Both the position numbers and the translations under genes were made by a program. The notes beneath the pieces were generated by a model that was not told where the DNA came from, searched no databases, and was given only the letters and a program-made list of their open reading frames with translations. From an uncultured Collinsella sp. (lineage in GTDB: Bacteria > Actinomycetota > Coriobacteriia > Coriobacteriales > Coriobacteriaceae): 50,563 nucleotides of DNA. Of this stretch, positions 8,225 to 42,834 are shown one piece after another; within the stretch, counting starts at the first letter, position 1, and each line of letters starts with the position of its first letter. The stretch lies in assembly GCA_934658705.1 (NCBI GenBank), contig CAKUHP010000010.1, positions 1-50,563 on the forward strand. Reading direction: 5' to 3'.

Positions 8225-8241
8225 AATTATTGGAGGTCCTA

Positions 8242-8592
8242 ATGTCCCCACTTGTTCTGGAAAAACCGGTATTCACTAAGGATCAGGTTGTCTCGGCTAC
8301 CGAGGCAAGCAAATCGCTCTCCACAATCCGTAAGCGCGCCAAACGTGCACCGCAGTTCATCGCCGATCATAATGATATCGATACCGTAATAATCGATTAC
8401 GCTGCCTATGAGGAGATGTACGGCGCGCTGCGGTATCTACGCGAACTTGAGATTGATCGCATCGCGGCTGATCGAATGAAGAACGGTCCGCATGAGCTTA
8501 TTCCGTTTGAGGATGCTCTGACACCCGAGGAACTCGCGGAGTTTGAGTCGATGGATCCGGACGCGATTCCCGATGAGGATCTTTTCGAATGA
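8242..8592 (+). CDS. Type II antitoxin, Phd/YefM-like
   Basis: A 116-aa protein. Residues about 16-75 follow the Phd/YefM pattern (VVSATEASKSLSTIRKRAK, then VIIDYAAYEEMYGALRYL), the N-terminal DNA-binding and dimer domain. The C-terminal part is strongly acidic (ELAEFESMDPDAIPDEDLFE), typical of the toxin-wrapping tail. GGAGG lies 5 nt before the ATG at 8242; an in-frame TTG further upstream overlaps that site and is unlikely. Its last 4 nt overlap the toxin start. It would neutralise the RelE-like toxin and, with it, repress the palindromic promoter upstream. Confidence 0.87.
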   Translation: MSPLVLEKPVFTKDQVVSATEASKSLSTIRKRAKRAPQFIADHNDIDTVIIDYAAYEEMYGALRYLRELEIDRIAADRMKNGPHELIPFEDALTPEELAEFESMDPDAIPDEDLFE

Positions 8593-8933
8593 GTGGGCAG
8601 TTTGTTGTTTGCTTTTTGAACCGAGACGTCGAGAAGGAATATCAAAAACTCGATGGATCTCAGAGAAGGCTCGTCCGTTTTGCAGTCGCAAAATTAAAGA
8701 CGCGCGCCGATGAAATTGGAACGCCGCTTCACGGTGAGCTTGCCGGCTGCAAAAAGATCAAATGGCGGAATGCGGGACTCCGAATGGTTTTTCGAATCCG
8801 AGAGGACGGAACGGTTGAGATCGCTGAAATCGTGGCAATAGGGCGACGCGACCGGTCTGAAGTCTATAAGACGGCGGCAGCGCGCCTGTCAAAGCGACCA
8901 GCCATGGTCGAATACGATGGAACTTTGAGATAA
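8589..8933 (+). CDS. Type II toxin, RelE/ParE superfamily
   Basis: A basic 114-aa protein with the RelE/ParE-fold pattern: an N-terminal strand, the helix RDVEKEYQKLDGSQRRLVRFA, then LAGCKKIKWRNAGLRMVFRI and a C-terminal VAIGRRDRSEVYKTAAARL segment with the basic residues expected for ribosome-dependent mRNA cleavage. It overlaps the antitoxin gene by ATGA, so translation is coupled. The C-terminus is slightly longer than usual (about 14 residues after the conserved Arg-rich helix). Whether it is an mRNA interferase (RelE) or a gyrase poison (ParE) cannot be settled from sequence alone; the RNA-cleaving type is more likely. Confidence 0.87.
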   Translation: MSGQFVVCFLNRDVEKEYQKLDGSQRRLVRFAVAKLKTRADEIGTPLHGELAGCKKIKWRNAGLRMVFRIREDGTVEIAEIVAIGRRDRSEVYKTAAARLSKRPAMVEYDGTLR

Positions 8934-33365: not shown

Positions 33366-33701
33366 ATGTGTGATTGCATTTTCTGCAAAATCGCCAACCA
33401 CGAGATCCCCTCGACCGTCGTTTATGAGGACGACCAGGTCATCGCGTTCGACGACCTTAACCCCCAGGCTCCGATCCATACGCTCGTGATTCCCAAGAAG
33501 CATTACAGTGACATCGCCGACAACGTGCCTGCCGAGACTATGGGCGCCATGGCCCACGCCATTCAGGAAGTCGCCAAGGCCAAAGGCCTGGAGGACGGTT
33601 TCCGCGTCATCTCCAACAAGGGCGTCAACGCCGGCCAGACCGTCATGCACTTCCACATGCACGTCCTCGGCGGCAAGAACCTGGGCGAGAACCTCATCTG
33701 A
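33366..33701 (+). CDS. HIT family protein (HINT/PKCI-like)
   Basis: A 111-aa histidine-triad protein that hydrolyses adenosine phosphoramidates or related nucleotides. The triad HFHMHVLGG has His95, His97 and His99. CDCIFCKIANHEIPSTVVYED at the N-terminus carries the zinc-type Cys pair of the HINT branch. It is preceded by the inverted repeat structure and AGAAAGGAACC. It marks the end of the GC-rich core genome on this side: the 207 nt after it, and the next five genes, are richer in A and T. Confidence 0.93.
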   Translation: MCDCIFCKIANHEIPSTVVYEDDQVIAFDDLNPQAPIHTLVIPKKHYSDIADNVPAETMGAMAHAIQEVAKAKGLEDGFRVISNKGVNAGQTVMHFHMHVLGGKNLGENLI

Positions 33702-33920
33702 GGGCGCCTGCGGCGGAGTCTTTGCGATATAGCAACATGTTGTGGAAAATTGCCCCTCGTCGGTAATGTGCATTTTAGAATTGGTCTGCGAGCGGGATGA
33801 CATAAAGAAGTCGTTCTTGCTTGCTTTATGGGATGAGTTTTGTGTGCTCGTGATAACAAACGATGGAATGAGTGCCTTGTTTTCACGTGTGGCGCGCGAA
33901 CTGGTTAAGTGAGATTATCG

Positions 33921-34814
33921 ATGAATATTTCGCAGCTGGAATACCTTGAGGCAGTTGTAAGGCATGGCGGCGTTCGCAAAGCAGCATCCATGTTGCACGT
34001 AACGCCTCAAGCCGTTTCGTCGGCTGTAAAAAAGCTGGAAGCGGAGCTAGATGTTGAATTGCTTAATCGGGATGCAAAAGAAATAACACCGACTGTCGAG
34101 GGCAGGGAATTTGCCCTTCGCGTAAGAACAATCTTGCTTCAGATCGAGGCGTTAAAACAGTTTTCAAAAAACCAGACTCATGGTGTTTCCCCAGATGGAC
34201 ATTTCAGACTCTACGTTCCATGCCTTCATGGGAGGGGGCGGTTGTTTGGCGAGGACTGTTATGACTCTTTTGTGGCTCAATGTCCTCAAATTCATCTGGA
34301 TGTTTGGCATCAACCCAGTGCAGCTTGTTTTGAATCGCTTGGAATGGGCATTTCTGATGCGGCTGTGTCTTTGGAAGCACCGAGCAGCAATGATTTAAAT
34401 TATAAGAGATTGGGAGAAAGGGAGCTTAGGGTTCTTGCCTATTGCAAAGATGTTGTTTTGCCTGACATTTCAATTCAAGAGCTGCTTTGCGGGAGGTTGG
34501 CAGTTCCCATTAATCTGGGACCCTGTTTGAGTGCGATCGGTCGATGCTCTGAAGCCCAGCTTCAAGGTTTTAAATTTCGTGATGTTGAGTACCAACTGAC
34601 TGAGCAACTTGCATTTCTTAAAAGCGGCGGGAGAATCCTGACCTTTCCCGAATCGACGATTTCCAAGAAAGATGACGATATCCAGGAGTGCTGTATCCAC
34701 GGGTCCAAAGAGCTCTCTCTCCCTATCTTCTTTTGTTACAGAAAAGGAGAGTGGAGCGAAAGGCACCGAATTGTATTCTGGCATCTCATGGAATCACTTC
34801 GATTGCAGGCGTAA
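33921..34814 (+). CDS. LysR-type transcriptional regulator, probable regulator of the peptide cluster
   Basis: A 297-aa regulator with an N-terminal winged HTH (ISQLEYLEAVVRHGGVRKAASMLHVTPQAVSSAVKKLEAELDVELLNRD), then a linker helix and an effector domain that is only weakly typical of LysR proteins. The effector part contains several cysteines. The codon use and composition are more AT-rich than in the upstream genes. It is the first gene of the distinct region, in the same direction as the precursor peptide and radical SAM genes, with about 100 nt between it and the peptide gene, so it is the natural candidate for controlling them. Start ATG 33921; the Shine-Dalgarno is weak. Confidence 0.82.
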   Translation: MNISQLEYLEAVVRHGGVRKAASMLHVTPQAVSSAVKKLEAELDVELLNRDAKEITPTVEGREFALRVRTILLQIEALKQFSKNQTHGVSPDGHFRLYVPCLHGRGRLFGEDCYDSFVAQCPQIHLDVWHQPSAACFESLGMGISDAAVSLEAPSSNDLNYKRLGERELRVLAYCKDVVLPDISIQELLCGRLAVPINLGPCLSAIGRCSEAQLQGFKFRDVEYQLTEQLAFLKSGGRILTFPESTISKKDDDIQECCIHGSKELSLPIFFCYRKGEWSERHRIVFWHLMESLRLQA

Positions 34815-34913
34815 AGCAACAATTGTCGAAGGCTAATGGTTATTTGACATTCATAGGCATATCTTTTTCCTCAAGCGATCGCTAATTTAATCCTTTGAGA
34901 GAAAGGTATTGCC

Positions 34914-34991
34914 ATGAAATCACTGAATAAAACTAATGCTGATGCAAAGTCAGAGCGAACCGTTTGCATGTACAACGCGTGCAAAGCTTAG
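34914..34991 (+). CDS. Candidate RiPP precursor peptide, 25 aa
   Basis: A 25-codon frame with GAGAGAAAGG upstream of the ATG. The N-terminal part is polar and charged (MKSLNKTNADAKSER), resembling a leader; the C-terminal part TVCMYNACKA carries two cysteines in a C-x4-C arrangement with a Tyr between them. The frame is followed 10 nt later by a strong terminator and then by two radical SAM/SPASM genes. Small size, a Cys core and its position fit a precursor of a radical-SAM-modified peptide. A non-coding reading, or a regulatory leader peptide, remains possible; there is no run of identical codons that would suggest attenuation. Confidence 0.65.
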   Translation: MKSLNKTNADAKSERTVCMYNACKA

Positions 34992-35001
34992 GACTTTCTG
35001 G

Positions 35002-35027
35002 GGGCGGCTCATATGAGCCGCCCTTTT
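35002..35027 (+). terminator. Terminator between precursor peptide and radical SAM genes
   Basis: Positions 35002-35023 are a perfect 22-nt palindrome (GC-rich GGGCGGCTC arm, ATAT centre) followed by TTTT. It should end most transcripts after the peptide gene and let some through to the enzymes, a common way to make precursor in excess of its maturases. Confidence 0.85.
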
Positions 35028-35044
35028 CATGTGAGGTGAGATTA

Positions 35045-36421
35045 TTGGGTTTTGTCAAGCTAGATGAGCTTGAGATGATCAGATTAAATTGTGATGGCTT
35101 TATCCTCGTTAATTTAACCAATGGAAATGCCGACCTCATCGACAATACGGTTGCAAACGCATTTCTTTCTGGCTCATTTGATGACGTTGCTTATCCCGTA
35201 TTGCGACAGCTTGAGGAACGAAGGTACATTTTCCCAACAAAATTGAAACGCGCTGAGTTTCTTGCTGCATTTGATCGTCGACTTGAAGAGGAATCTAAAC
35301 GAGAAACACCTAACTTTATCGTTGTGCCAACTTATTCGTGCAATCTTGATTGTTATTACTGCTTCGAAAGAGCGAGCGTGCCTGTTGAAGCGTTTGACCA
35401 TGAGGAGAACATGCTTAATGTCTCGGATTTCTTTCAATTTGTAGATGAGACGCTCGGTTCTTACGAATCTAAATTTGGGGAGATTAACAAATCTGAAGTA
35501 ACGGTTACTATAACGGGTGGTGAGCCCCTTCAGGCAAAATGCGCGGATACGATTGAATCGCTATTTGAGGGTTGTGAAAAGAGGGGGATTGGGGTCGATG
35601 TCGTCACAAATGGCCTTAATATCCCAGATTATTTTGGACTGTTACAAAAGTATTCTTCCACGATTCTCGGCATTCAAATTACTTTAGACGGAGATAGGGA
35701 CGTACATGATTCCATCAGAGTTTCTTCAAAGGGGGAGCCGACCTTTGATCTGATAGTTCGCTCAATATGCATGCTGGATAATGCGGGGTTTAGCGTTAAT
35801 GTAAGAATTAATGCAACTCGGCTGAACATACATTCAATAGATGCGTTATCACCGCTTATTGAGAACCATCAAAATGTTCTGTTTTATGTGTACTTAATGC
35901 AACAGGAAGGTTGTTGCAAAAATGTAAATGTCGTCCCAGAGCTTGATGGACTTCGCTTTCTTGATGAGATGAAGAAAACGAAGCCTGCATTGAATGGATT
36001 ACTTGTTGATTATCATGGACGTCATCTTATTGATGCGGTTTTTGGCGATAGGACGTTTCATCCAAAAATAAAAGTATGTGCCGCAATGGGTAACCAGTTT
36101 ATTTTCGATGCATGCGAATCCATCTATAAATGCTGGTGGGCTATGGGGTCACCAGATAGGTCGGTGGGTGTGTGCCACGGCGGCAAAATAGCATGGAATG
36201 CCGGCCTCATTCGGAGTTATCGCAATCGCAATGTCATCCAAATGGAGAAGTGCCGTTCGTGTAAGTACCGCTATATTTGTGGCGGTGGCTGCACCGGAAA
36301 GCTCGATATCTCCGACTTGAATGCCGGAGCAGTTGCATGTCCGGATTTCGCTTCAATTATTAATTACAAAGTTCATTATGAGTATGAAAGCAGAGTCGCC
36401 GGAGGTGCAGATTTGTGCTGA
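35045..36421 (+). CDS. Radical SAM/SPASM peptide-modifying enzyme 1
   Basis: A 458-aa enzyme that would use a SAM-cleaving [4Fe-4S] cluster bound by Cys99, Cys103 and Cys106 in PTYSCNLDCYYCFE. TITGGEPLQ is the glycine-rich SAM segment and VTNGL the following one. The C-terminal SPASM domain, carrying auxiliary clusters, is visible as CRSCKYRYICGGGCTGK (Cys403, 406, 412, 416) and Cys432. The 90-residue N-terminal region may recognise the peptide leader. An upstream ATG at 34964 would run through the precursor gene and terminator; the TTG at 35045 has GAGGTGAG about 5 nt upstream and is preferred. It overlaps enzyme 2 by 7 nt. Confidence 0.88.
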   Translation: MGFVKLDELEMIRLNCDGFILVNLTNGNADLIDNTVANAFLSGSFDDVAYPVLRQLEERRYIFPTKLKRAEFLAAFDRRLEEESKRETPNFIVVPTYSCNLDCYYCFERASVPVEAFDHEENMLNVSDFFQFVDETLGSYESKFGEINKSEVTVTITGGEPLQAKCADTIESLFEGCEKRGIGVDVVTNGLNIPDYFGLLQKYSSTILGIQITLDGDRDVHDSIRVSSKGEPTFDLIVRSICMLDNAGFSVNVRINATRLNIHSIDALSPLIENHQNVLFYVYLMQQEGCCKNVNVVPELDGLRFLDEMKKTKPALNGLLVDYHGRHLIDAVFGDRTFHPKIKVCAAMGNQFIFDACESIYKCWWAMGSPDRSVGVCHGGKIAWNAGLIRSYRNRNVIQMEKCRSCKYRYICGGGCTGKLDISDLNAGAVACPDFASIINYKVHYEYESRVAGGADLC

Positions 36422-37713
36422 GTCAAGCCGACTATACCGTTATTAGAACTCGTCGCGGTGATTTATTTGCCGCTAATTTTCTGACCGGAACACTTGACAT
36501 TGTCGATTCGGCTATTGTTTCTGATTCGAATGAGATTGAACCAGGTTTACTTGACGACAAACAAGTAAACCTTCTTTTGGAACGAGGGCATTTACAGGAC
36601 GAGAGCGAGGGCCAGATTCTAACGCTACCTCATCTTTGGAGCGAGTATCGCGATAAGGCTTGCGTCAGATGCTATTTCTACGTTCAATTGACCTTGGCGT
36701 GCAACTTGCGATGTCGCTATTGCTTCCAGGGGGAAGGTGGATACCCGCAGATCCATATGACGGTTGATGTCCTAGAGGAGGTCCTTCAGGTTCTTGAGAG
36801 CATTGTCAGACGCATCAATAACCCCTCTCGTATGGTGGTCGTTCTATACGGCGGAGAACCATTGCTGCTCACAAACAGAGGATTAATCGAAAAGATATTT
36901 CGCTTCTGCGAGGAGAATCGTTTGCGAGTGAGAGCTATTAGCAACGGAGTTAATTTGCCGCTCTTTTTCGACCTTCTTGAGCAATATCATGATTTGTTTG
37001 AAGGCGTAACAATCACTCTAGATGGAGATCGGTCTACGCATGATTTTCTAAGACCGTTTGCCAATGGATCTGGATCCTATGACCGTGTGGTTTCTTCAAT
37101 CGGAGATGCTGCATCTATGGGCATAGACGTATCTGTACGGCTGAATGTCACGCCCGACTCAATAGGCCATTTAAAAAGAAACAATTGGAGACTTCCCGGT
37201 GTTTCCTATGAAATACACAGAGCTGAATATCCTGTGTATGCCAATTCAGTTCGGTTCTATGAGATTCTCGATCTGTGGCTAAAGGGCTATGTTGATGTTT
37301 CTGAAGTTGCATTAAACCAAGTCGTTTATTTCATTCGTCTATTCGAAAGTGCGAACTCTTACTATCCGCTATTTTCTGACTGTTTTCCTGGGTCCGTAAC
37401 TTTGTTTTCTCCGTCCGGCTCAATCTATTGTTGCAATGAGGTTAATGACAAGAGAGCGTATTTGGGTCATGTAAACGATGACCGGAAGTCGTGTATTCGT
37501 GAGGTTGAGAGTCTGTTCTCGGGCCTGTCGGGGCATCCGAGTGGCAGCCCCTGTCTCAGCTGCCCCGCATATCCTGTTTGCGGGGGCGGTTGTCGCATTA
37601 GGCGCGGGATTGCCTCGAACTATAAAGCCTGCGATTACTATCAAGATATTATGGAAATGCTGGATTATTATATTGACTGGAAAGTGAATGGTGCGGCGTA
37701 TGCGTATGAATAA
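36415..37713 (+). CDS. Radical SAM/SPASM peptide-modifying enzyme 2
   Basis: A 432-aa relative of enzyme 1 with the same architecture. Cys96, Cys100 and Cys103 in ACNLRCRYCFQGE bind the SAM cluster; VLYGGEPLL and AISNGVNLP follow. The SPASM part ends in CLSCPAYPVCGGGCRI (Cys380, 383, 389, 393) and Cys406. The N-terminal segment (YTVIRTRRGDLFAANFLTGTLDIVD) resembles that of enzyme 1, so the two are probable duplicates that act on the same peptide or as a pair. The GTG start at 36415 overlaps the stop of enzyme 1, with GGAGGTG 7 nt upstream. Its end overlaps the transporter gene by 26 nt. Confidence 0.88.
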   Translation: MLSQADYTVIRTRRGDLFAANFLTGTLDIVDSAIVSDSNEIEPGLLDDKQVNLLLERGHLQDESEGQILTLPHLWSEYRDKACVRCYFYVQLTLACNLRCRYCFQGEGGYPQIHMTVDVLEEVLQVLESIVRRINNPSRMVVVLYGGEPLLLTNRGLIEKIFRFCEENRLRVRAISNGVNLPLFFDLLEQYHDLFEGVTITLDGDRSTHDFLRPFANGSGSYDRVVSSIGDAASMGIDVSVRLNVTPDSIGHLKRNNWRLPGVSYEIHRAEYPVYANSVRFYEILDLWLKGYVDVSEVALNQVVYFIRLFESANSYYPLFSDCFPGSVTLFSPSGSIYCCNEVNDKRAYLGHVNDDRKSCIREVESLFSGLSGHPSGSPCLSCPAYPVCGGGCRIRRGIASNYKACDYYQDIMEMLDYYIDWKVNGAAYAYE

Positions 37714-38863
37714 AACCATCCCGCTCTATATGGCTTTTGTTTTCCTGTCGAACTTCAGCACCATTTTGTATTTTCTGACGGTTTACCTTGAGTTCGTCGG
37801 ATTCTCGATGGTTGCGATTTCCGGCATGATGATTGCGTACCAAGTGAGCAAATTTGCTCTTGAGATTCCCACGGGCTATATCGCCGATAGGTTTGGACGA
37901 AAGACAAGTGGCCTGGTGGGCATCGCGGGAATGCTTGGATACTACGCTGCCCTGCTTCTCATCCGGTCTCCTCTGCTTTTGATCGGTGCATTTGCTCTCA
38001 AAGGCTTCGCCGTCGCATGTGTGAGCGGTTCTATCGAGGCAATCTATATCGATTCCGTCTCTCAAGATCGGCTAGTTAGACTCAATGTGGTTGAGCGATT
38101 CGTCTTTTACGCAGCTTATGCTCTTTCCGCATGTGTGGGTGGCTTCATCTCGTCCGAAGGTGCATATTTCATCGGTCTATCGGCCGATATCTTCGCAGTG
38201 GTACTGACGTTAATTGTTGTTGCATGTATTCCCGAGGCGAAAAGGAAAGGTAGCACAGCGGCTTCTGAGCGCCAAATTAGCCCGAGGATGATTTGGGATG
38301 CTATTGCGGGCAATAGCATCCTTAGCTCGGCGTTCGTCATGGACTGTTCCCAGGCATTTGCTTTCGTTGCTCTCGAAGACTTCTTCTCGCTGCTGCTCGC
38401 TGGTCGCGGAATGGACGCCGTTTCTTCGGGGATGACAATTGCGATCCAGCTTCTTGTCTCCGCGTCTATCGGTTTTATCGTGCCCAGCGTAATTGCTCAT
38501 GTAGACAAGAAACGTTTTGCGCGCATTTGCGGCATCGTTCGCCTTTCCCTAACTGCTTTGTTTCTGATTCCCTTTACTCCAGTTTGCCTGCTGCCTGTGT
38601 TCTATGTACTGCAGACGGTTGCTTACGCTTTATTTGCCCCGATTAAATACTCAGTTTTTCAAAATGCCGCCGATTCATCGATGCGCTGTTCGCTGATTTC
38701 GGTTCAAAGCCAGATGGTGGCGGTGGGCGCTATCCTTTTCTATCTATTCAATGCCGCGCTGAGTGGCATTATGGGCATTCAGCTCGTATTGCTTTTTGCG
38801 CTTGGGATTTCTTCTCTGGCGTATATTCCCGCGCTATTCCGTCTTACAAGCCAAAGGCCATGA
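37688..38863 (+). CDS. MFS transporter, candidate peptide exporter
   Basis: A 391-aa major-facilitator protein with about 12 hydrophobic segments and the MFS signature between helices 2 and 3 (GYIADRFGRKTSGLVG). It begins inside the end of radical SAM enzyme 2 (26-nt overlap), which ties it to the cluster; ATGs at 37688, 37700 and 37706 are all possible starts. It may export the modified peptide or give immunity. No ABC exporter or C39 peptidase is present, so leader removal would need a protease from elsewhere or may not occur. Its composition is intermediate between the AT-rich cluster and the core genome. Confidence 0.85.
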   Translation: MVRRMRMNKTIPLYMAFVFLSNFSTILYFLTVYLEFVGFSMVAISGMMIAYQVSKFALEIPTGYIADRFGRKTSGLVGIAGMLGYYAALLLIRSPLLLIGAFALKGFAVACVSGSIEAIYIDSVSQDRLVRLNVVERFVFYAAYALSACVGGFISSEGAYFIGLSADIFAVVLTLIVVACIPEAKRKGSTAASERQISPRMIWDAIAGNSILSSAFVMDCSQAFAFVALEDFFSLLLAGRGMDAVSSGMTIAIQLLVSASIGFIVPSVIAHVDKKRFARICGIVRLSLTALFLIPFTPVCLLPVFYVLQTVAYALFAPIKYSVFQNAADSSMRCSLISVQSQMVAVGAILFYLFNAALSGIMGIQLVLLFALGISSLAYIPALFRLTSQRP

Positions 38864-38891
38864 GCATACATCGATAACTTATATATCAACG

Positions 38892-38925
38892 CAATAAACC
38901 CGAGCGCGAGGGCGTTTGGGTTTAT
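38892..38925. terminator. Hairpin ending the peptide cluster
   Basis: AATAAACCC (38892-38900) pairs with GGGTTTATT (38917-38925) around a 16-nt loop and lies 28 nt after the MFS stop codon. Confidence 0.65.
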
Positions 38926-38979
38926 TATTGAAGCGTATGTAACCTGGCGGCGCCACACCGCCTGTTAGTAGGGAGACAC

Positions 38980-40158
38980 ATGAACGTTCTGGTCGTCAAC
39001 GCAGGATCTTCGACCCTTAAGTATCAGGTCATCGATACCAAGTCCCACAAGGTGTCCGCAAAGGGCTCCTGCGAGCGCGTCTGCTTTACCGGCGGTACCT
39101 TCACCCACGCTGCCAACGGCTCCAAGAAGGTGACCGAGAACATCGAGTTCCCCGACCACAAGGTCGCCATCGAGGTCGTCCTGAAGGACCTCGAGGCCAA
39201 CGGCGTCAAGATCGAGGGCATCGGCCACCGCATCGTTCAGGGCGGTTGGTACTTTGGCGATTCCTCCCTCGTCGACGAGGACGTTCTTGCCAAGATCCGC
39301 GAGGTCGCTCCGCTCGCCCCGCTGCACAACAACCCCGAGGCCAACGTTATCGAGTTCTGCCTGGAGCAGTATCCCGACCTGCCCAACGTCACGGTCTACG
39401 ACACCGCTTTCCACTTCAACATGCCCGAGGTCGCCAAGACCTACGCCCTGCCCAAGGACGTCTGCGACAAACTGCACATCCGTAAGTACGGCGCCCACGG
39501 CACCAGCTACCGCTACATCTCCAAGAAGGTTGCTGAGATGACCAACGGCGAGGCCCGCAAGGTTGTCGTGTGCCACATCGGCTCCGGCGCTTCCCTGTGC
39601 GCTATCGAGGACGGCAAGTGCATGGACACTACCATGGGCCTTACCCCGCTCGACGGCGTCATGATGGGCACCCGTTGCGGTTCCATCGACCCGGCTACCG
39701 TGTGCTACCTGCAGCGCGAGGGTGGCTACACCTTCGACGAGGTTGACGAGATGATGAACAAGAAGTCCGGCCTCATGGCTGTGACCGGCGGCAAGACCAA
39801 CGACTGCCGCAACGTCGAGGAGCTCGCCGCTGCTGGCGATCCCGAGGCTCAGCTCGCCTTCGATATGTTTGTCTACAAGATTGCCGCCAAGGCCGCCGAG
39901 ATGGCAACCTCTATGTGCGGCATGGACACGCTCGTCTTTACTGCCGGCATCGGCGAGCACGCTCCGGCTGTCCGCGCCGGTGTGGCCGACCGTCTGGCCT
40001 TTATGGGCGTCAAGATGGACCATGCCCGCAACGCTCTGCGCGGCGACGGCGCTTGGTGCCTGTCTGCCAAGGATTCCAAGGTCAAGATCTTCGTCATCCC
40101 CACGGATGAGGAGTTCATGATCGCTTCCGACGTCGAGCGTATCGTCAACGGCAAGTAA
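38980..40158 (+). CDS. ackA: Acetate kinase homologue, copy 1 (divergent active-site residues)
   Basis: A 392-aa member of the acetate kinase family, which makes ATP and acetate from acetyl phosphate. MNVLVVNAGSSTLKYQ, PLAPLHN, YDTAFHFNMPE and MMGTRCGSIDPATV are recognisable. At three positions that are nearly invariant in AckA it differs from copy 2 downstream: Tyr177 in KYGAHGTSY where the family has His, Ser202 in CHIGSGAS where the family has Asn (GNG), and His327 in TAGIGEH where the family has Asn. Activity or substrate may therefore be changed. GGGAGA precedes the ATG. It has its own terminator, so the two genes are separate units. Confidence 0.85.
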   Translation: MNVLVVNAGSSTLKYQVIDTKSHKVSAKGSCERVCFTGGTFTHAANGSKKVTENIEFPDHKVAIEVVLKDLEANGVKIEGIGHRIVQGGWYFGDSSLVDEDVLAKIREVAPLAPLHNNPEANVIEFCLEQYPDLPNVTVYDTAFHFNMPEVAKTYALPKDVCDKLHIRKYGAHGTSYRYISKKVAEMTNGEARKVVVCHIGSGASLCAIEDGKCMDTTMGLTPLDGVMMGTRCGSIDPATVCYLQREGGYTFDEVDEMMNKKSGLMAVTGGKTNDCRNVEELAAAGDPEAQLAFDMFVYKIAAKAAEMATSMCGMDTLVFTAGIGEHAPAVRAGVADRLAFMGVKMDHARNALRGDGAWCLSAKDSKVKIFVIPTDEEFMIASDVERIVNGK

Positions 40159-40172
40159 TTGATGCAAGGGGA

Positions 40173-40209
40173 GGGGACTGGATGGCTATGTGCCGTTCAG
40201 CCCCTTTTT
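40173..40209 (+). terminator. Intrinsic terminator of ackA copy 1
   Basis: GGGG(A)CTG (40173-40180) pairs with CAGCCCC (40198-40204) around an inner GGC/GCC pair, followed by TTTTT. Confidence 0.8.
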
Positions 40210-40225
40210 ATGCGCTTTGAGCGAA

Positions 40226-40251
40226 GAGTTTAATAGAGAATTATTGAACTC
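40226..40251. promoter_or_regulatory. 26-nt AT-rich inverted repeat upstream of ackA copy 2
   Basis: GAGTTTAATA (40226-40235) faces TATTGAACTC (40242-40251) with one T-G opposition. It lies about 70 nt before the start of copy 2, in its promoter region, and is a candidate operator. Confidence 0.5.
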
Positions 40252-40322
40252 TGATAACTTCTTATTAAGGATACGGCCGCCTTACAGGTTTGCCGACCGT
40301 ACTGTAATCACGAAGGAGTCTC

Positions 40323-41501
40323 ATGAACGTACTTGTTGTCAACGCCGGCAGCTCGAGCCTTAAATATCAGCTTTTGGACACCGATACCCGCGAGGTTTTC
40401 GCCAAGGGTAACTGCGAGCGTATCGGCTCGGAAATGGGCATCTTTGGCCACTCCGAGAACGGTGGTGCCAAGCAGACCGAGGAGATTCCTTTCCCCGACC
40501 ACCGCTCGGCTATCGCGCGTGTACTCGAGGAGCTCGAGAAGACTGACTTTACGATCGATGGCATCGGTCACCGCATCGTTCAGGGTGGCTGGTACTTCGA
40601 TGATTCCGCGGTCGTCGACGATGAGGTCATGGCTAAGATTCTCGAGGTGGCCCCGCTCGCCCCGCTGCACAATTACGGCGAGGCCGCGGCAATTGAGTAT
40701 TGCCGCGAGAAGTATCCGGAGCTGCCCAACGTGGCCGTTTTCGACACGTCGTTCCACATGACGATGCCCGAGGTCGCCTACACCTACGCCCTGCCCAAGG
40801 ACGTGTGCGACAAGTACCACGTGCGCAAGTACGGTGCCCACGGCACGAGTCACCGCTACGAGTGGATGATGGCCAAGGAAATCCTGGGCTCACGCTGCCA
40901 CCGCCTGCTCTCGTGCCACCTGGGCAACGGCGCCTCGCTCGCCGCGATCGAGGACGGCGTTTGCCGCGATACCACGATGGGCCTCACGCCGCTCGACGGC
41001 CTGATGATGGGTACCCGTTGCGGTTCCATCGACCCTGCCACCGTGTGTTACCTGCAGCGCGAGGGCGGCTACAGCTATCAGGAAGTCGACGACATGATGA
41101 ACAAGCAGTCCGGCCTGCTTGCCATCTCGGGCATCTCCAACGACGCTCGCGACATCCGTACGCGCGCCTCCGAGGGCGACGAGCGCTGCCTGCTCGCCTT
41201 CGATATGTTCGCCTACAAGGCCATGCAGCAGGCCGGCTCCATGATTGCTTCCATGGCGGGCGTGGACACCATCACCTTTACCGCCGGCATCGGCGAGAAC
41301 GACTGGTCGATCCGCAAGGCCTTCTGCGACTGCTTTGAGTGGCTGGGCGTGCGCATCGACAACAATAAGAACCGCGAGGCCGTGGGCAACGGCCCGCAGG
41401 TCATCAGCGCCGCCGGCTCTGCCGTCACGGTCATGGTCATCCCCACCGACGAGGAATACATGATCGCCCACGACGTCGAGCGCCTGACCAAGAACAACTA
41501 G
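40323..41501 (+). CDS. ackA: Acetate kinase, copy 2 (canonical)
   Basis: A 392-aa acetate kinase, the ATP-forming last step of acetate fermentation. All family residues checked are intact: VVNAGSSSLKYQ, KYGAHGTSH (His177), CHLGNGAS (Asn202), GTRCGSIDPATV, TAGIGEN (Asn326) and PTDEEYMIAHD. Its partner phosphotransacetylase is encoded convergently on the other side of the intergenic repeats. Same length as copy 1 and alignable without gaps up to about residue 270, so the pair came from tandem duplication. AAGGAG precedes the ATG. Confidence 0.93.
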   Translation: MNVLVVNAGSSSLKYQLLDTDTREVFAKGNCERIGSEMGIFGHSENGGAKQTEEIPFPDHRSAIARVLEELEKTDFTIDGIGHRIVQGGWYFDDSAVVDDEVMAKILEVAPLAPLHNYGEAAAIEYCREKYPELPNVAVFDTSFHMTMPEVAYTYALPKDVCDKYHVRKYGAHGTSHRYEWMMAKEILGSRCHRLLSCHLGNGASLAAIEDGVCRDTTMGLTPLDGLMMGTRCGSIDPATVCYLQREGGYSYQEVDDMMNKQSGLLAISGISNDARDIRTRASEGDERCLLAFDMFAYKAMQQAGSMIASMAGVDTITFTAGIGENDWSIRKAFCDCFEWLGVRIDNNKNREAVGNGPQVISAAGSAVTVMVIPTDEEYMIAHDVERLTKNN

Positions 41502-41853: not shown

Positions 41854-42834
41854 CTACTCAGCCATCTGAGCCTGGACGGCGGTGATGGCCACGACACCCA
41901 CGATGTCGTCGGCAGAGCAGCCGCGCGAAAGGTCGTTGACCGGCTTGGCGATGCCCTGCAGGATGGGGCCGTAGGCGTCGGCGCCGGCGAAGCGCTGGAC
42001 CAGCTTGTAGCCGATGTTGCCGGCCTCGAGGTCGGGGAACACGAGCACGTTGGCCTTACCGGCAACGGAGGAGCCGGGAGCCTTGAGCTGGGCGACGGTG
42101 GGGACGATGGCGGCGTCGAGCTGCAGGTCGCCATCGATGGCGAGCTCGGGAGCCTTCTCCTGGCAGAACTTCACGGCCTCCTGGACCTTCTTGGCGACCT
42201 CGCCGCCGGCGGAGCCCATGGTGGAGTAGGAGAGCATTGCCACGTGCGGCTCGACGTTGCCCATGAAGGTGGACCAGGAGTGAGCGGAAGCGATGGCGAT
42301 CTCGGAGAGCTCGTCAGAGGACGGGTTGATGTTGAGGCCGCAGTCGGCAAAGATCAGCGTGCCGTCGGTGCCGAACTGCGGGGTGTCGGTGCACATCACG
42401 AAGAAGGCCGAGACCAGCTTGGTGCCCGGGGCGGTCTTGAGGATCTGCAGCGCGGGGCGCAGGGTGTCGGCGGTGGAGTGGCAGGCGCCGGAGACCAGGC
42501 CGTCAGCATCGCCCATCTTGACCATCATGGTGCCAAAGTAGGTGGCGTCCATCACCTGGGCGCGAGCCTGCTCGATGGTGACGCCCTTCTTGGCGCGGAG
42601 CTCGGCAAACTTCTGCGCGTACTCCTCGTGCTTCTCGGCATTGCGCGGGTCGATGACGGTGGCGCCGGGAACGTTGATCTCGTCGGGGTTGCCCAGGATG
42701 ACGATCTTTGCCAGACCCTCCTCGATGATCTTAGTAGCCGCGACGATGGTGCGCGGATCCTCGCCCTCGGGCAGGACGATGGTCTTAAGGTCTGCCTTGG
42801 CGGCGGACTTCATACGGTTTAGGAAATCGCTCAT
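41854..42834 (-). CDS. pta: Phosphate acetyltransferase
   Basis: Converts acetyl-CoA and phosphate to acetyl phosphate, the substrate of acetate kinase. The 326-aa length is the short, single-domain form. Recognisable segments are TIVLPEGEDPRTIVAATKI, MVKMGDADGLVSGACHSTADTLRPALQI, AFFVMCTDTPQFGTDG, MLSYSTMGSAGG and the C-terminal VFPDLEAGNIGYKLVQRFAGADAYGPILQG. AAGGAG precedes the ATG at 42834. It is transcribed towards the two ackA genes, and not co-transcribed with them. Confidence 0.95.
   Translation of the reverse strand: MSDFLNRMKSAAKADLKTIVLPEGEDPRTIVAATKIIEEGLAKIVILGNPDEINVPGATVIDPRNAEKHEEYAQKFAELRAKKGVTIEQARAQVMDATYFGTMMVKMGDADGLVSGACHSTADTLRPALQILKTAPGTKLVSAFFVMCTDTPQFGTDGTLIFADCGLNINPSSDELSEIAIASAHSWSTFMGNVEPHVAMLSYSTMGSAGGEVAKKVQEAVKFCQEKAPELAIDGDLQLDAAIVPTVAQLKAPGSSVAGKANVLVFPDLEAGNIGYKLVQRFAGADAYGPILQGIAKPVNDLSRGCSADDIVGVVAITAVQAQMAE

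What the first reader, a model, noticed from the sequence alone, without database searches (positions are those of the whole stretch)
33921..38863. Unassigned radical SAM peptide (RiPP) cluster on an AT-rich island
Seen: a LysR-type regulator, a 25-aa peptide gene, a palindromic terminator, two SPASM-domain radical SAM enzymes with overlapping ends, and an MFS gene overlapping the second enzyme, all in one direction and visibly AT-richer than the genes on both sides. Known: peptide gene, terminator, then radical SAM/SPASM maturase and exporter is the common layout of RiPP clusters. Inference: this is a complete, transferred RiPP system. The paired SPASM enzymes, the very short precursor with a C-x-Y-x-x-C core, the LysR regulator, and the absence of an ABC/C39 exporter do not match any class I can name.
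Basis: partly seen in the sequence, partly recalled or inferred. Interest (0 to 1): 0.9.

Follow-up and report, generated by a model that had tools for sequence, protein, structure and literature searches.

The report
Two-enzyme radical SAM peptide cassette
A small, apparently imported gene cassette most likely makes a tiny ring-shaped peptide from a 25-residue precursor using two paired radical enzymes; the precursor's C-x-Y-x-x-C-K tail seems to be kept in a distant relative, and the enzymes fit no named family that was checked.

Summary
In detail: LysR regulator, 25-aa ORF (MKSLNKTNADAKSERTVCMYNACKA), a GC-rich palindrome, two overlapping SPASM radical SAM genes (E1, E2) and an overlapping MFS gene, at 42-50% GC against 50-66% around. 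Best read as a RiPP cassette. In searches of 5.8 billion proteins E1 has 22 clusters of relatives and E2 eight; none of the NCBIfam models listed reaches 30% of its cut-off. The best for both is CefB (Cys-every-fifth), and the two cysteines here are five apart. E1's model matches the thioether maturase CteB throughout, with an RRE-like N-terminus. E1-E2 pairing is inferred in three other pairs of relatives. Relatives' DNA could not be fetched, but two over-extended E1 relatives carry the peptide region in another frame: P0122 (92%) admits CMYNACKA-stop; P0133 (39%) admits M1...C18-x-Y20-x-x-C23-K24-stop at identical positions, with a Shine-Dalgarno site at the same spacing (7 of 5000 shuffles score as well). 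So the peptide is probably a conserved precursor. The chemistry (probably a thioether from Cys23 and/or Cys18 to Tyr20) is inferred, not shown. New variant of a known kind.

The parts
33921..34814 (+). LysR-type regulator
   Evidence: PF00126 HTH_1 66.2 bits; effector domain PF03466 only 21.6 bits, below cut-off 28; GC3 0.446
34914..34991 (+). Precursor peptide gene, 25 aa; proposed leader residues 1-17, core C18-M-Y20-N-A-C23-K-A
   Evidence: frame compatible with the same C/Y/C/K positions in relatives P0122 and P0133
35002..35023 (+). Perfect GC-rich palindrome followed by TTTT; proposed leaky terminator or 3' stabiliser of the precursor mRNA
   Evidence: not listed by the terminator scan
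35045..36421 (+). E1, SPASM radical SAM maturase with RRE-like N-terminal domain (TTG start)
36415..37713 (+). E2, second SPASM radical SAM maturase, start overlaps the end of E1 by 7 nt
37706..38863 (+). MFS transporter, proposed exporter (alternative start 37688)
   Evidence: PF07690 62.8 bits
38893..38926 (.). Inverted repeat (15-nt arms, 87% complementary) between the MFS gene and ackA, probable end of the operon

Best explanation
A RiPP cassette. The LysR protein switches on an operon (inferred). The 25-aa peptide is made in excess over the enzymes because the hairpin behind it stops or trims most transcripts (inferred). Its first 17 residues act as leader, bound by the RRE-like N-terminal domains of E1 and E2 (fold from prediction, binding inferred). 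E1 and E2, neighbours with overlapping ends in the core clade as far as could be seen, act together on the eight-residue tail C18-M-Y20-N-A-C23-K-A, most likely making one or two radical thioether cross-links from Cys23 and/or Cys18 to Tyr20 or a neighbour (mass loss 2 or 4 Da), giving a one- or two-ring peptide (chemistry inferred from the nearest families and from which residues can be kept). An unlinked protease removes the leader and the MFS protein exports the small product (inferred).
Against: No relative's DNA was read; conservation of the peptide rests on compatibility of degenerate codons in two proteins, and the motif and stop tolerance were chosen after looking at P0133. Some shuffles score higher than P0133 (best 10.5 against 8.5), and the bare tail C-x-Y-x-x-C-K-stop fits 15 places in the other proteins and 166 of 20000 shuffles. 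P0122 is so close that its fit is weak evidence. By my hand reading of P0122's letters its hairpin would have one A-C mismatch in the stem and one mismatch at the tip. None of the 16 E1 clusters outside the core clade shares a contig length with any of the 120 listed E2 hits (compared by eye), so E2 may not be needed for the core reaction. Scores are far below cut-offs (CefB 104 and 101.8 of 600; PapB 44.2 and 88.7 of 340). No protease, product or expression data.
Confidence: 0.6

Rival explanations
1. RiPP cassette, but the cross-link is carbon-carbon or carbon-oxygen at Tyr20 (cyclophane or PQQ/mycofactocin-like tyrosine chemistry), with the cysteines left free or as a disulfide.
Against: Both cysteines can be kept as well; the best models are Cys-rich maturases; Tyr-x-x has Ala at the third place here and one of H, L, P, R in P0133, not the Asn usual in cyclophane motifs (recalled).
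Confidence: 0.2
2. The 25-aa ORF plus hairpin is a transcription attenuator (leader peptide) of the enzyme operon and not the substrate; the enzymes modify a peptide encoded elsewhere.
For: Short ORF followed by a strong hairpin just before the enzyme genes.
Against: No run of regulatory codons; among the 11 of 24 window residues that P0133 admits, C, Y, C and K lie together at the C-terminus; no competing hairpin was seen in the 66-nt fold, though a longer stretch was not folded; no other SD-led ATG ORF was found between LysR and E1 on the + strand.
Confidence: 0.08
3. E1 and E2 act like TrnC/TrnD of thuricin CD: a tight complex in which only one enzyme's radical chemistry is strictly needed for the bonds. 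(A variant of the best explanation, not exclusive with it.)
For: Overlapping genes, mirrored trees, 36% identity over 169 residues between E1 and E2; TrnC/TrnD precedent (PMC12093266 abstract).
Against: E1 clusters outside the core show no E2 partner in the hits seen; one precursor here, two in thuricin CD.
Confidence: 0.3

Closest known systems
CefA/CefB, Cys-every-fifth radical SAM system (NCBIfam NF038107)
   Same: Best NCBIfam model for both enzymes (104 and 101.8 bits), matched by all 20 E1 and all 9 E2 rows; the two cysteines here are five residues apart.
   Different: Scores are about a sixth of the cut-off (600); one Cys interval only; two enzymes here; no paper in the library holds the term 'Cys-every-fifth'.
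PapA/PapB and SCIFF/CteB ranthipeptides
   Same: SPASM enzyme; CteB has an RRE and E1 matches it along its whole length; E2 scores 88.7 bits with PapB.
   Different: Cut-offs 340 and 425 not reached; precursor has two Cys in 25 residues, no CX3D motif, not six Cys in about 45.
NxxcA/NxxcB ranthipeptide of Streptococcus
   Same: Cys bonded to the residue three before it (Cys23 to Asn20, PMC8326336 section 7); here Cys23 and Tyr20 have the same spacing.
   Different: Acceptor would be Tyr, not Asn; no sequence comparison with NxxcB was made.
Thuricin CD (TrnA, TrnB, TrnC, TrnD)
   Same: Two radical SAM enzymes in one small-peptide cluster.
   Different: Two precursors there; TrnC/TrnD sequences were not compared here.

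Membership tests
RiPP (general) | Ribosomal precursor gene beside its modifying enzyme | tested here: met
   25-aa ORF with ATG and SD directly before E1; frame compatible in 2 of 2 readable relatives
RiPP (general) | Leader-binding RRE or equivalent | tested here: inconclusive
   Three strands then three helices at 9-85 of E1, and CteB match from residue 6; E2 similar but weaker; no RRE profile was run
RiPP (general) | Modified peptide product | not testable with these tools
   needs mass spectrometry
Ranthipeptide | Maturase over the cut-off of a ranthipeptide model (PapB NF047865, SCIFF TIGR03974) | tested here: not met
   E1 44.2 and 40.7, E2 88.7 and 62.5 bits against 340 and 425
Ranthipeptide | Thioether to a non-alpha carbon | not testable with these tools
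   chemistry
SCIFF | Six cysteines in about forty-five residues | tested here: not met
   two cysteines in 25 residues
Cys-every-fifth (CefA/CefB) | Maturase over cut-off of NF038107 (600 bits) | tested here: not met
   104 and 101.8 bits
Cys-every-fifth (CefA/CefB) | Cysteines spaced by five, repeated (read from the family's name) | tested here: inconclusive
   one interval, C18 to C23
Mycofactocin | Maturase over cut-off of TIGR03962 (265 bits) | tested here: not met
   46.9 and 43.8 bits
Sactipeptide | Thioether to an alpha carbon | not testable with these tools
   chemistry; StsB model 46.6 bits of 625 for E2
Thuricin CD type | Two precursors served by two radical SAM enzymes | tested here: not met
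   one precursor ORF found between LysR and E1

The most novel reading that the evidence does not exclude
An unnamed RiPP class whose whole product is about eight residues: two SPASM enzymes working as a pair tie both cysteines of C-x-Y-x-x-C to the one tyrosine between them, making a two-ring peptide centred on Tyr, exported by an MFS pump as a small signal or antibiotic.
Probability: 0.15. Interest if true: 0.75.

Novelty: new variant of a known kind. Interest (0 to 1): 0.55.

Why it matters
It adds a small, unnamed family of peptide maturases with a testable precursor of only 24-25 residues, short enough to synthesise, in which a kept Cys-Tyr-Cys pattern points at the site of chemistry. It would extend radical thioether chemistry to a tyrosine acceptor or show a division of labour between two SPASM enzymes. 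Genes this short fall below the usual length limit of gene finders (90 nt, recalled), so such precursors are easily missed; reading them out of over-extended neighbouring proteins may be useful elsewhere.

Tried and rejected
Rfam found nothing in 33700-39000 at E 1. No whole genome is held for the window, so kin could not be searched. The one genome-contig scan, with E2, gave a single 27% relative (L001). Plasmids: E2 33 records (20 listed, 22-32%), E1 48 records (8 listed, 25-27%), MFS none. Phages with E1: 26 records (20 listed, 24-29%). Insertion marks: no tRNA in the window; no direct repeat of 11 nt or more inside either flank; across the island one 15-nt direct pair at 87% lies within the coding sequences of HIT and ackA and was set aside, and one 12-nt inverted pair at 92% sits at the two edges (33915-33926, 38866-38877) but is one of 22 inverted pairs found, so not relied on. 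The idea that E2 arose from the E1 family by local duplication: 36% identity over 169 residues, but the E1 family is not among E2's 120 listed hits and the tree separates them (midpoint root), so not claimed. Literature: searches returned no papers; some searches listed 15, 4, 9 and 10 (of 60), and no title or abstract start there describes this layout. Of these I read one section and passages of PMC8326336, passages of PMC9062424 (it mentions one other cluster with two radical SAM enzymes, in Mucilaginibacter) and PMC9413430, and the abstract and outline of PMC12093266. This covers open-licence PMC only. The 'after MFS' line of the output is a slicing slip in my script and was ignored. The host is probably a coriobacterium such as Collinsella, from recall only; not tested.
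Full report
What is there. The stretch 33.9-38.9 kb holds, all on the + strand, a LysR-type regulator, a 25-aa ORF, a perfect 22-nt palindrome, two SPASM radical SAM genes and an MFS gene. It stands out sharply: five 1-kb bins at 0.420-0.498 GC against 0.504-0.661 for the other 45, and third-position GC of 0.40-0.53 in its four large genes against 0.72-0.85 in seven flanking genes. The flanks are housekeeping genes as far as I recognise them (RNase D-like, a membrane metallopeptidase-like gene, xseA, xseB, HIT upstream; two acetate kinases and a phosphotransacetylase-like gene downstream; names recalled, none searched; the two acetate kinases are 60% identical to each other).

Gene starts. The ORF finder begins E1 at TTG 34964, inside the peptide gene. 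Most relatives begin about 27 residues later, and TTG 35045 has GAGGTGA just before it, behind the palindrome. E2 starts at GTG 36415 with GGAGGTG before it and overlaps E1; the MFS gene overlaps E2. The peptide has AGAAAGG seven bases before its ATG, the same kind of site as the neighbouring HIT and xseB genes, and a stop codon in frame six codons upstream.

How rare the enzymes are. Against 5.8 billion proteins E2 has seven clusters at 45% identity or more (97, 90, 89, 55, 46, 46, 45) and one at 31% over 98%; the other 112 listed hits are at 34% or less (939 hits, 120 listed). E1 has 21 clusters from 92 to 34% (26 hits in all) and one more (P0148, 33%) when the alignment of 20 was used (43 hits); the next are 31% over 44% of the length and 25%. 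So the E1 family looks closed and small: 22 clusters in the union of both searches, within the reach of a word-based search that scored about 8000 candidates each time. P0128 and P0142 appear only. None of these E1 or E2 clusters bears a name from its source.

Do E1 and E2 belong together? Three hints from relatives. Two single-member E1 clusters share the exact contig length of an E2 cluster: P0123 with P0005 (22123) and P0126 with P0008 (35568). P0007, an E2 protein called with extra N-terminal residues, can be read in another frame as the last 17 residues and stop of P0125 (E1) with a single mismatch, while the 144 control tails have at best 8 mismatches and the other 21 E1 tails at best 9 or no fit within 12. 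In the tree (41 rows) the E1 core splits into window+P0122+P0123 and P0124-P0127, and the E2 core into window+P0002-P0005 and P0006-P0008, with the linked pairs on matching sides (the fork that joins P0005 to the window's E2 group has only 83/71 support). Against a fixed pair: none of the 16 E1 clusters outside this core has a contig length equal to that of any of the 120 listed E2 hits (compared by eye). This speaks mainly for the six single-member ones (P0129, P0131, P0138, P0140, P0142, P0148), three of which lie on contigs under 5.2 kb; a more distant partner could have been missed.

Is the peptide real? I could not fetch relatives' DNA. But two E1 proteins were called with starts so far upstream that their extra residues carry information on the DNA of the peptide gene, read in another frame. 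P0122 (92%) begins inside it; its letters admit CMYNACKA-stop exactly, and by my reading the two differences from the window in that stretch (V6L, G10R) can both lie at third positions of the peptide frame. P0133 (39%) covers the whole region with 64 extra residues. Its codons admit, in one frame, a 24-residue ORF with M1, K2 or R2, C18, Y20, C23, K24 and a stop, exactly the window's positions except that the window has one more residue before its stop (joint existence checked for M1, C18, Y20, C23, K24 and stop). The same pattern is found nowhere in the shifted frames of the other proteins scanned (137030 positions counted, P0133's included) and in 0 of 20000 shuffles of the extension; the tail C-x-Y-x-x-C-K-stop alone is found 15 times in the other proteins and in 166 of 20000 shuffles. 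A scoring of the whole window peptide without a chosen motif gives 7 of 5000 shuffles as good or better (best 10.5 against 8.5) and 0 of 2701 stretches of other proteins (best 6.5). The ATG so placed admits AGGAGG seven bases before it, the spacing seen in the window; 124 of 6658 background ATG-compatible sites admit AGGAGG at 5-9 bases. These tests were designed after I saw the fit, and compatibility is not sequence; I take them as good but not final evidence. A third protein, P0125, has extra residues too few to reach the peptide; they admit a T run of up to 10 followed by AGGAGG four bases before the true start, as a terminator followed by a ribosome site would.

How it may work. C18, Y20, C23 and K24 can be kept in P0133, while M19, N21 and A22 cannot. 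That puts the chemistry at the Cys-Tyr-Cys triad. Known radical thioethers to non-alpha carbons join a Cys to Asp, Asn or Thr: Cys23 to Asn20 in NxxcA, Cys to Asp in a CX3D motif for PapB, Cys32 to Thr34 or Thr37 in SCIFFs (PMC8326336 section 7 read; PMC9413430 passages seen). Tyr20 and Cys23 have the NxxcA spacing. I therefore favour one or two Cys-to-Tyr (or neighbour) thioethers, with E1 and E2 working as a pair, as TrnC and TrnD do for thuricin CD (PMC12093266 abstract seen). Export by an MFS protein and control by LysR are inferred from position alone.

Verdict. The layout and foreign composition are confirmed, the RiPP reading is strengthened, and the enzymes form a small unnamed family. 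It works like a ranthipeptide-type maturase system but is not a member of any curated family by the cut-offs listed. New variant of a known kind.

Noticed in passing
8230-8933: Two overlapping small genes (120 and 114 aa) in the most AT-rich bin outside the island (GC 0.504) look like a Phd/YefM-RelE type toxin-antitoxin pair, by eye only.
   Followed up: no
38980-41501: Two acetate kinase genes in tandem, 60% identical to each other, facing a phosphotransacetylase-like gene on the other strand (41854-42834).
   Followed up: partly
36543-36572: A perfect 11-bp inverted repeat (8-nt loop) followed by TCTTTTGG inside the E2 coding sequence; could affect transcription within the operon.
   Followed up: no
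33915-33926 and 38866-38877: A 12-nt inverted repeat (92% complementary) lies just before the LysR start and just after the MFS stop, at the edges of the AT-rich island; one of 22 inverted pairs in the stretch, so possibly chance.
   Followed up: no
36415-37713 versus 35045-36421: E1 and E2 are 36% identical over 169 residues of the radical SAM core although the wider searches keep their families apart.
   Followed up: partly
L001 6001-7125: A proteobacterial MAG encodes a 27% relative of E2 (residues 17-394); its neighbourhood was not read.
   Followed up: no
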